Below are positions 26,472 to 28,487 of a stretch of DNA of 42,300 nt, one piece after another (position 1 is the stretch's first letter; each line of letters starts with the position of its first letter). The stretch is from Synechococcus sp. M44_DOE_062 (GTDB taxonomy: Bacteria; Cyanobacteriota; Cyanobacteriia; Thermostichales; Thermostichaceae), in assembly GCA_015295985.1 (NCBI GenBank), contig DVDX01000042.1, forward strand, positions 1 to 42,300. Reading direction: 5' to 3'. Below the pieces are notes generated by a model. The model saw only the letters and a list, made by a program, of their open reading frames with translations, was not told the origin of the DNA and ran no database searches. The translations under genes were made by a program, and so were the position numbers.

Positions 26472-27059
26472 CTACCCCGCCGTCCGCTGTCCAATCAGGG
26501 CATAGAAGGGATCCCCGCCTCCGCCTGCCCAAAAGCCCAGCCAACCCATAGGGGCAGGCCGCTGGATCACTTTCACCACCTCAAACCCCGGCACTGACTC
26601 AAAATAGCGCCTGACCAACTCCACCCGCCCCGCCTCGGAGTTGTCCCGCCAAGCCTGGATTGCCTTCTGGAAAAACATGCGATTGGAGAAGCTGACGATG
26701 AACAGGCCCTGGGGCTTTAGGATGCGATACACCTCGGCAAACACCTGCTCCGGCTGCTGCAGATATTGCACCGAAACCGTATTCAGCACTGCCTCGAAGG
26801 ATTGATCGGGGAAAAGCAGAACTGGGTTTTGGTTCAAGTTCTGGATGAAGAAGTGATTGAGCCGAGGGTTGGCCGCCAGTTCCTCAGGGTTCATCCCGTG
26901 CCCTTCCACGTGGGCAAACTCCATCTCAGGTGGCAAATGGGAGACCCAACTGCTCATCAGATCGAGAATGCAGGTCTGAGGCCGCAGGTACTCGCGGTAC
27001 AGATCGGTGAGCTGGCCAATAAAGCCAGAGTCCACATGGGTTACAAAGCGAGGATAGCT
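26472..27059 (-). pseudogene. Class I methyltransferase, 3' part, interrupted by a TnpB element
   Basis: The frame reads SYPRFVTHVDSGFIGQL, DLMSSWVSHLPPE (SAM-binding region) and VSVQYLQQPEQVFAEVYRILKPQGLFIVSFSNRMF, the pattern of a small SAM-dependent methyltransferase widespread in cyanobacteria. The substrate is unknown. Its first 21 codons lie 1.4 kb away at 28425-28487 on the other side of an insertion element. Joining 28425 to 27059 gives one uninterrupted frame of 216 residues. A GTG at 27035 with no obvious ribosome site might still start a 187-residue product lacking the N-terminal 29 residues, so some residual expression is possible. Confidence 0.85.
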
Positions 27060-27200
27060 TTGACATGCTCCCCTGCCTAAGGGCAGGGGATTCTTGTTCT
27101 TGGTTCAGCGACAGCACTTACCGTGTCGGGTTGCCCATCCACGACAGCGGTGCTCATCTCCCCAAGCGTTCCCTCAGTGCTAGGCACCGAGGCGGTTCCC
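27060..27200 (-). ncRNA. Putative omega RNA (reRNA) of TnpB at the right end
   Basis: In TnpB systems the guide RNA scaffold comes from the 3' end of tnpB and the right end of the element, and the guide is the adjoining host sequence. Here the stop of tnpB lies in the right-end stem CCCCTGCC-TAAG-GGCAGGGG (27070-27089), and the guide would start at 27059 reading leftwards (AGCTATCCTCGCTTTG). The 5' limit is only a guess. Presence of the RNA is inferred from family knowledge. Confidence 0.4.
27070..27089. repeat. Right-end hairpin of the IS200/IS605-type element
   Basis: An 8-bp perfect stem CCCCTGCC/GGCAGGGG with loop TAAG lies seven bases inside the TTGA terminus. A variant of the same hairpin occurs at 42257-42276. 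Confidence 0.8.
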
Positions 27201-28355
27201 TTATGCCCTAAGGTACCGTTGTTCCACTCGATCCCCAACATCTCCAGACCCCGGATTAGGATGACCCTTGCGGCATTAACGTCGCAACAGAGCACTATCC
27301 CACATCTGGGGCATTGGTGGGTACGAGTAGAGAGAGTTTTCTGCACCCAATAGCCACAGCCGGAGCAGTCTTGGCTGGTGTACTGCGGGGGTACGGCTAT
27401 CACCACCTTGTCGAACACCTTGCCGTAGTAGTCCAGCCACCGGGTAAACAAACTCCAACTGGCATCGTGAATCGACTTAGCCAGATGATGATTTCGGACT
27501 AGGTTATGCACCTGCAAGTTCTCGTACACCACGATGTCGTGAGACATCACCACGCACCGGGCTAACTTGATCACCCAGTCCCTACGCTGGCGTTGGACTT
27601 TGAGATGCACTTTTCCTAGCCTTTTCCTTTGCTTGTGGTAGTTCTGGGATTGGGGCTTGATCCCTTTCCTGAACTTCCTGCTTAACCTCCGTTGATGTTG
27701 TTTTATCCTCCTTTCGCTACGTCTCAAAAACTTGGGACAATCTACCTTGTTACCGTTCTGGTCAGTATAGAAGTGAACCAGTCCTAAATCAATACCAATC
27801 ACCTGCCCCGTGTACTTCCCCGGCTCTTTGTGCTCGACATCCAAACAAAACTGAGCATAGTAGCCGTCGGCTCTGCGAATAACCCGCACTCGGTTAATTT
27901 TGTGCTGGAGAATGTCTTGCCGTGCTTCTCCATTGCAGTAGAGGGAGAAGGTGCCCGCCCCGAAACCATCCGTGAAGGTGATGCTCATGCCATCGGCAGA
28001 TAGCTTCCACCCGGATTGTTTGTATTCTACTGAACGGCAATGCTTTTTGAATTTGGGGTATCCCTTTTTCTTCTCCCCGTTTTTGCAGCGGCGATAGAAG
28101 TTAGAAATTGCAGACCAAGCCTATTCTGCACTGGCTTGCCGTGCCGCTGAGTTAAGCTGATTGGCAAAGGCAAATTCTTTCGCTAAATCTTTACACAGAG
28201 CGTAGAGTTGCTTCTTCCCTACCCCTTGATTATCCATCCAATAGCGCAAGCATTTATTTCGCACAAACTGCATCGTGCGAATTGCCTCATCCAGAGCTTG
28301 GTACTGCTCTGGGGTGCCGTTTAACGTTTAAGAGTTTGGCTTCTCGGATGAGCAT
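27077..28355 (-). pseudogene. tnpB: tnpB RNA-guided nuclease gene, decayed
   Basis: The full-length frame would start at ATG 28355 (MLIREAKLLN) and encode about 423 residues. It is broken twice: a 7-bp tandem duplication (28318-28331) shifts the frame after codon 10, and an amber codon at 28121-28123 follows ASAE. From the internal ATG at 27988 an open frame of 303 residues remains. That part keeps the RuvC residues (GIDLG, VVYENLQVHNL, CDVNAARVI) and the zinc finger CSGC...CPRC. The N-terminal helix-bundle and part of the wedge domain are lost, so activity against DNA is doubtful. The C-terminal tail ends within the right-end hairpin. Confidence 0.88.
28318..28331. repeat. 7-bp tandem duplication that frameshifts tnpB
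   Basis: CGTTTAA is repeated head to tail. Removing one copy joins MLIREAKLLN to GTPEQYQALDEAIRTMQFVR in one frame, the normal N-terminus of TnpB. Confidence 0.85.
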
Positions 28356-28381
28356 AATTTTATCACAAAGTTGGCTGAATA

Positions 28382-28408
28382 AAAGCCGCCCTGGAAGGGC
28401 GGGGCTTT
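28382..28408. repeat. Left-end hairpin of the IS200/IS605-type element
   Basis: CCGCCC (28386-28391) pairs with GGGCGG (28397-28402) around loop TGGAA, extended by AAAG/CTTT across a 2-base bulge. It lies 16 bases inside the left terminus at 28424. Confidence 0.65.
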
Positions 28409-28424
28409 AGACCCAAGGTCTTTG

Positions 28425-28487
28425 GTAAAAGAGGGCATCGTCGCTGGGATCCAACTTGGAGCGCTGCCAATCCTCAAGCACCACCAT
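28425..28487 (-). pseudogene. Methyltransferase, 5' fragment
   Basis: This 21-codon fragment (MVVLEDWQRS... ending DDALFY) is the start of the methyltransferase whose remainder is at 26472-27059. It ends at TTTAC next to the left end of the TnpB element. The ATG at 28487 is the natural start of the intact gene, giving a 216-residue protein after reconstruction. Confidence 0.8.

What the first reader, a model, noticed from the sequence alone, without database searches (positions are those of the whole stretch)
27060..28487. TnpB element inserted in a methyltransferase gene, with both junctions readable and a guide that matches the empty allele
Excising 27060-28424 joins TTTTAC to AGCTATCC and restores one 216-codon frame (DDALFY then SYPRFVTHVD). 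The left flank TTTAC and right terminus TCAA match IS608-type cleavage sites. In TnpB biology the guide is the host sequence next to the right end, here AGCTATCCTCGCTTTG, and the left flank TTTAC would act as the TAM. The RNA would therefore direct cutting of methyltransferase alleles lacking the element, favouring its spread in a population. The sequence shows the junctions; the targeting role is inference from known TnpB systems.
Basis: partly seen in the sequence, partly recalled or inferred. Interest (0 to 1): 0.72.

Follow-up and report, generated by a model that had tools for sequence, protein, structure and literature searches.

The report
Decayed TnpB transposon in methyltransferase gene
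A small jumping element of a well-known bacterial family has landed precisely inside a methyltransferase gene of a Synechococcus-like cyanobacterium; the insertion and the intact gene in relatives are real, but the element's RNA-guided cutting enzyme carries two disabling mutations, so the proposed targeting is most likely a thing of the past here.

Summary
On the minus strand, a 1365-bp element (28424 to 27060) interrupts a 216-codon methyltransferase frame. All five congeneric genomes searched carry the uninterrupted gene, fused exactly at the predicted point. In the closest (91% identical) the TAM-like TTTAC is intact and the first 14 guide bases match. The ends carry all four IS608 recognition motifs: TTAC, AAAG, GAAT, TCAA. 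About two dozen other sites in the genome carry related ends, mostly 240-410 bp elements without genes, and several have exact empty sites in the nearest relative. The right-end RNA fold is supported by compensatory changes. The functional inference is not supported for this genome. The element's tnpB is a pseudogene, with a 7-bp tandem duplication near codon 10 and a TAG stop about 70 codons further on, where two intact orthologues read arginine. The only other long copy is also broken. All three Y1 TnpA loci found are interrupted. That the guide matches the empty allele follows from the insertion mechanism and is not independent evidence of targeting. Best reading: a recently inserted, now non-autonomous IS200/IS605 (IS608-type, tnpB-only) element that has knocked out a conserved cyanobacterial methyltransferase. 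New copy of a known kind; modest interest.

The parts
27060..28424 (-). whole IS200/IS605-type element (1365 bp), left end at 28424, right end at 27060
   Evidence: exact empty site in congeners; 72% identical second long copy G000:C26
28425..28429 (-). left flank TTTAC (contains IS608-type cleavage site TTAC; would-be TAM)
   Evidence: sequence; TTAC at 16 of 19 left junctions of the family in this genome
28386..28404 (-). left-end hairpin CCCCGCCC-TTCC-AGGGCGG, preceded by left guide AAAG (28405-28408)
   Evidence: sequence; AAAG 5' of hairpin in nearly all copies
27077..28355 (-). tnpB pseudogene (start ATG 28353-28355, terminal stop 27077-27079)
   Evidence: guided_TnpB NF040570 253.9 bits over cut-off 100 when read through; 75-78% identical to intact TnpB of G004 and G001
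28318..28331 (-). 7-bp tandem duplication TTAAACG-TTAAACG, frameshift near codon 10 of tnpB
   Evidence: comparison with intact copies, which read LLNGT / LLYGT here
28121..28123 (-). in-frame TAG stop in tnpB (SAE*AW); intact copies have SAERAW
27060..27225 (-). right end with the putative omegaRNA/reRNA scaffold
   Evidence: RNA fold z = -3.2; consensus fold with 11 of 36 pairs showing two-sided compensatory change in 16 copies
27070..27093 (-). right guide GAAT (27090-27093) and right-end hairpin CCCCTGCC..GGCAGGGG (27070-27089)
   Evidence: sequence; conserved in family
27060..27063 (-). right cleavage site TCAA (element terminus)
   Evidence: TCAA at 20 of 24 right ends listed in this genome
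27044..27059 (-). host-derived guide AGCTATCCTCGCTTTG
   Evidence: 15/16 identical, first 14 exact, in G004 empty allele
26472..27059 (-). 3' part of interrupted class I methyltransferase gene
   Evidence: Pfam Methyltransf_11 5.3e-09 on the joined protein
28425..28487 (-). 5' part (21 codons) of the methyltransferase gene

Best explanation
This is a tnpB-only (no tnpA) element of the IS200/IS605 family with IS608-type ends. Shown: it sits 3' of TTAC inside a methyltransferase gene, with no target duplication, and the empty allele exists in all five congeners. Shown: its tnpB is a pseudogene, and no intact copy of that TnpB subfamily and no intact Y1 TnpA was found in this draft genome. Inferred: it was inserted in single-stranded form by a TnpA acting in trans, recently relative to the split from the nearest relative. 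Inferred: when its TnpB or a relative's was intact, the right-end RNA plus the flanking guide would have cut empty alleles carrying TTTAC next to the guide, as shown for other TnpBs. Today it most likely acts only as a disrupted-gene allele that may be mobilised passively.
For: Joined 216-codon frame. Exact empty site in G001-G005. Host frame still shows purifying selection and no stops (own vs G004 dN 0.018, dS 0.248), so the insertion is recent. All four IS608 motifs present. TnpB family membership, with the ISDra2 catalytic D, E, D aligned to acidic residues. Two lesions against intact orthologues of 418 and 426 aa. C26 copy broken. TnpA loci interrupted. At least five short copies of the same family (L146, L147, L150, L151, L154) also have precise empty sites in G004.
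Against: The genome is a 90-contig draft, so an intact TnpA or TnpB copy could lie in a gap. The two lesions rest on one assembly with no reads inspected. Empty sites could in principle also arise by precise excision in relatives, though five outgroups make that unlikely.
Confidence: 0.88

Rival explanations
1. One reading: the element is an active RNA-guided selfish unit whose RNA directs TnpB to cut methyltransferase alleles lacking the insertion, so that it spreads in the population.
For: Element, TAM, guide and scaffold anatomy all present. Empty allele with intact TTTAC and a 14-base perfect seed exists in G004. No TAM-plus-guide match closer than three mismatches remains in the own genome; only the element's own junction, without the TAM, and an unrelated 3-mismatch site were found.
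Against: tnpB frameshift plus nonsense codon; the only second long copy is also broken; no transcript evidence. The guide match is automatic for any such insertion.
Confidence: 0.06
2. The locus still makes a guide RNA that is used in trans by another, more distant intact TnpB of the same genome (for example those at C25, C16, C12, C7 or C58).
For: Several intact TnpB frames of 354-468 aa exist in the genome. The scaffold is conserved with compensatory changes among copies that encode no protein.
Against: Those TnpBs are only 25-36% identical to this one over partial lengths. The C7 element has a different scaffold and a different flank motif, TTAT. TnpB and its RNA usually co-evolve (established knowledge).
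Confidence: 0.06

Closest known systems
IS608 (Helicobacter pylori), IS200/IS605 family
   Same: TTAC left cleavage site kept in the flank, TCAA right end, guide motifs AAAG and GAAT, subterminal hairpins, no target duplication (PMC5934647)
   Different: no tnpA in the element; tnpB broken; cyanobacterial host
ISDra2 TnpB with reRNA (Karvelis et al. 2021, PMC8612924)
   Same: right-end RNA of about 150 nt ending in a host-derived guide; flank acts as TAM; catalytic D, E, D residues align
   Different: TAM TTGAT versus TTTAC/TTAC here; TnpB here is a pseudogene
PATEs, palindrome-associated elements of Haloquadratum (PMC3119063)
   Same: short gene-free relatives of IS605-type elements with subterminal palindromes, more numerous than the coding copies; IS200-type transposases mostly pseudogenes
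   Different: cyanobacterial; the copies here keep most of the right-end RNA scaffold
TnpB as gene drive of insertion sequences in plasmids (PMC11870625)
   Different: here chromosomal, and the nuclease gene is broken

Membership tests
IS200/IS605 family, IS608-type ends | insertion 3' of TTAC, no target duplication | tested here: met
   exact empty site in five congeners; TTAC at 16 of 19 left junctions
IS200/IS605 family, IS608-type ends | subterminal hairpins preceded by guides AAAG (left) and GAAT (right), right terminus TCAA | tested here: met
IS200/IS605 family, IS608-type ends | Y1 TnpA transposase in the element or supplied in trans | tested here: inconclusive
   none in the element; all three Y1 loci in the genome interrupted, but the draft has gaps and congeners have intact ones. 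The tnpB-only (IS1341-type) subgroup does not require its own tnpA
RNA-guided TnpB | TnpB family sequence with RuvC D-E-D and zinc ribbon | tested here: met
   NF040570 253.9 bits, Pfam PF01385 and PF07282, alignment to 8bf8 when read through
RNA-guided TnpB | intact reading frame able to make the protein | tested here: not met
   frameshift and TAG
RNA-guided TnpB | right-end RNA scaffold directly followed by guide | tested here: met
   sequence and structure level only
RNA-guided TnpB | guide RNA expressed and target cut | not testable with these tools
   needs RNA sequencing and cleavage assay

The most novel reading that the evidence does not exclude
The short gene-free copies form a dispersed set of guide RNAs, each matching its own empty site, kept functional by selection and served in trans by whichever TnpB is intact in the population, so that RNA-guided retention acts on elements that encode no nuclease.
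Probability: 0.15. Interest if true: 0.55.

Novelty: new member of a known kind. Interest (0 to 1): 0.3.

Why it matters
It gives a clean natural example of a TnpB element insertion with both junctions, the empty alleles and the decayed nuclease all readable. It also shows that a guide matching an empty allele is not by itself evidence of active targeting. The family of short copies that keep the RNA scaffold would be a tractable place to ask whether TnpB guides work in trans.

Tried and rejected
Rfam scan of the locus gave no match, even at E 1, so no curated RNA family covers this scaffold. Programmed readthrough or frameshifting was considered and rejected: intact orthologues read straight through both positions, and the 7-bp tandem repeat looks like a slip. 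A nuclease-dead TnpB-like regulator was considered and rejected, because the catalytic D-E-D residues remain and the frame is broken. Alternative downstream starts give only a 50-residue piece ended by the TAG and a 303-residue piece lacking the N-terminal domains. A second, intact methyltransferase copy in the genome was looked for and not found; only a 34% identical partial match turned up. Selection on the scaffold in short copies was examined by region: among close pairs the scaffold is only slightly more conserved than the middle (for example 97% against 94%), and copies were found by right-end similarity, so this is weak evidence. One short copy (L161) lacks most of the scaffold core. 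Script searches failed on file names and one search stopped part-way; the needed parts were redone.

Full report
What is there. Read on the minus strand, window 28424 to 27060 is a 1365-bp element lying inside a methyltransferase gene. The upstream host sequence ends ...GCCCTCTTTTAC. The element begins CAAAGACCTTGGGTCTAAAGCCCCGCCC... and ends ...GAATCCCCTGCCCTTAGGCAGGGGAGCATGTCAA. The host then resumes AGCTATCCTCGCTTTG.... Joining the flanks gives one 216-codon frame, with a Methyltransf_11 match and no curated equivalog above its cut-off.

The empty allele exists. The joined sequence was searched in relatives. All five congeners hold it uninterrupted, at 78-91% identity, as do more distant cyanobacteria. 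At the junction, G004 reads TTTAC then AGCTATCCTCGCTTCG: TAM-like flank intact, 15 of 16 guide bases (18 of 20), the first 14 exact. G001, G003 and G005 keep TTTAC but have 3-4 mismatches in 16, two of them next to the TAM; G002 has TCTAC. One study notes that the Deinococcus TnpB uses only about 12 proximal guide bases (PMC10278001), so only G004-like alleles would be plausible targets.

Which family. The IS608 hallmarks as given in PMC5934647 are left site TTAC, right site TCAA, left guide AAAG and right guide GAAT. All four are present, with AAAG and GAAT directly 5' of the two subterminal hairpins. In the own genome about two dozen further places carry one or both ends. Ends were located by alignment to the window element, not by motif. 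TTAC then stands at 16 of 19 left junctions, and TCAA at 20 of 24 right ends. Most copies are 236-413 bp and encode nothing.

These copies moved recently. Thirteen joined flank pairs were searched together in the congeners. For L146, L147, L150, L151 and L154, G004 has an exact fusion at the predicted point with a TTAC-type flank and 0-2 mismatches in 20 guide bases. Two others (L148, L153) are empty in G004 but diverged. L161 is ambiguous, because G004 has a small deletion there. The C26 site in G004 lacks the element, but the flank differs. The interrupted methyltransferase still shows dN 0.018 against dS 0.248 versus G004 and no stop codon, which fits a recent insertion. Only a distant second match for the methyltransferase was found in the genome.

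The nuclease gene is broken. Read through, the tnpB product matches NF040570 guided_TnpB at 253.9 bits against a cut-off of 100, and aligns to ISDra2 TnpB 8bf8 with the catalytic D, E and D in place. But the frame carries a 7-bp tandem duplication, TTAAACGTTAAACG (28318-28331), about ten codons in, and a TAG at 28121-28123 where the intact G004 (418 aa) and G001 (426 aa) proteins read arginine. Downstream starts yield only a 50-residue and a 303-residue fragment. The one other long copy in the genome, on C26, is split by frameshifts and stops. Other intact TnpB frames exist in the genome but are only 25-36% identical over partial lengths.

No intact transposase was found. The element has no tnpA. 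The Y1_Tnp model finds three loci in the genome: one with an in-frame TGA, one with an in-frame TAG and one split by a frameshift. The congeners have intact ones. The genome is a 90-contig draft, so absence is not proven.

The right-end RNA. The last 166 bases fold with z = -3.2 against shuffles. On 16 right ends, 97.4% of pair cells are standard. Eleven of 36 pairs show two-sided changes, 36 such cells against 1-4 in slid controls and 10.3 on average in shuffles. Related sequences inflate such counts, but the slid control keeps relatedness. No Rfam family matches. The resemblance to a TnpB reRNA or omegaRNA is therefore good at the level of position and structure; expression is untested.

Judgement. 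The claim that the RNA would direct cutting of empty alleles is established biology for active TnpB elements (PMC8612924; gene drive on plasmids, PMC11870625). Here the machine is broken in this genome. The match between guide and empty allele is a built-in consequence of insertion, not evidence of activity. The overall kind is known, including the short gene-free relatives (PATEs, PMC3119063). The open and more interesting point is whether short copies that keep the scaffold use a TnpB in trans; the evidence for selection on the scaffold in those copies is weak.

Identity of the organism. G004 (3,046,682 bp) and G001 (2,932,766 bp) match in length, from memory, the Yellowstone isolates Synechococcus JA-2-3B'a and JA-3-3Ab.

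Noticed in passing
L173 (G000:C7:110000-114000), L164, L169: Left guide and left cleavage site appear to change together: AAAG with TTAC in most copies, AAAA with TTAT in the C7 IS605 element and L164, CAAG with TGAC in L169, as expected if a TnpA reads its target by guide pairing.
   Followed up: partly
L103 (G001), L146, L150, L151, L155, L158, L161, L173, L174: Short palindromic repeats (such as AGGCCTACGGCCCGCT, 25 exact copies in the genome, none for the reversed control) sit inside TnpB frames, terminal hairpin loops and the RNA scaffold of IS605-type elements, recalling the small mobile repeats that target IS605 elements in Haloquadratum.
   Followed up: partly
G000:C71:48150, G000:C7:110747, G000:C16:23029-23384: All three Y1 TnpA genes found in this genome are interrupted although the family's short copies look recently mobile.
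   Followed up: yes
window 26472-28487: The interrupted methyltransferase is present in every congener and in many other cyanobacteria but has no curated name above cut-off; its loss here suggests it is dispensable in this strain.
   Followed up: partly
L103 (G001:C1:2702074-2703436): A TnpB copy in a congener carries several separate short-repeat insertions within one gene.
   Followed up: no
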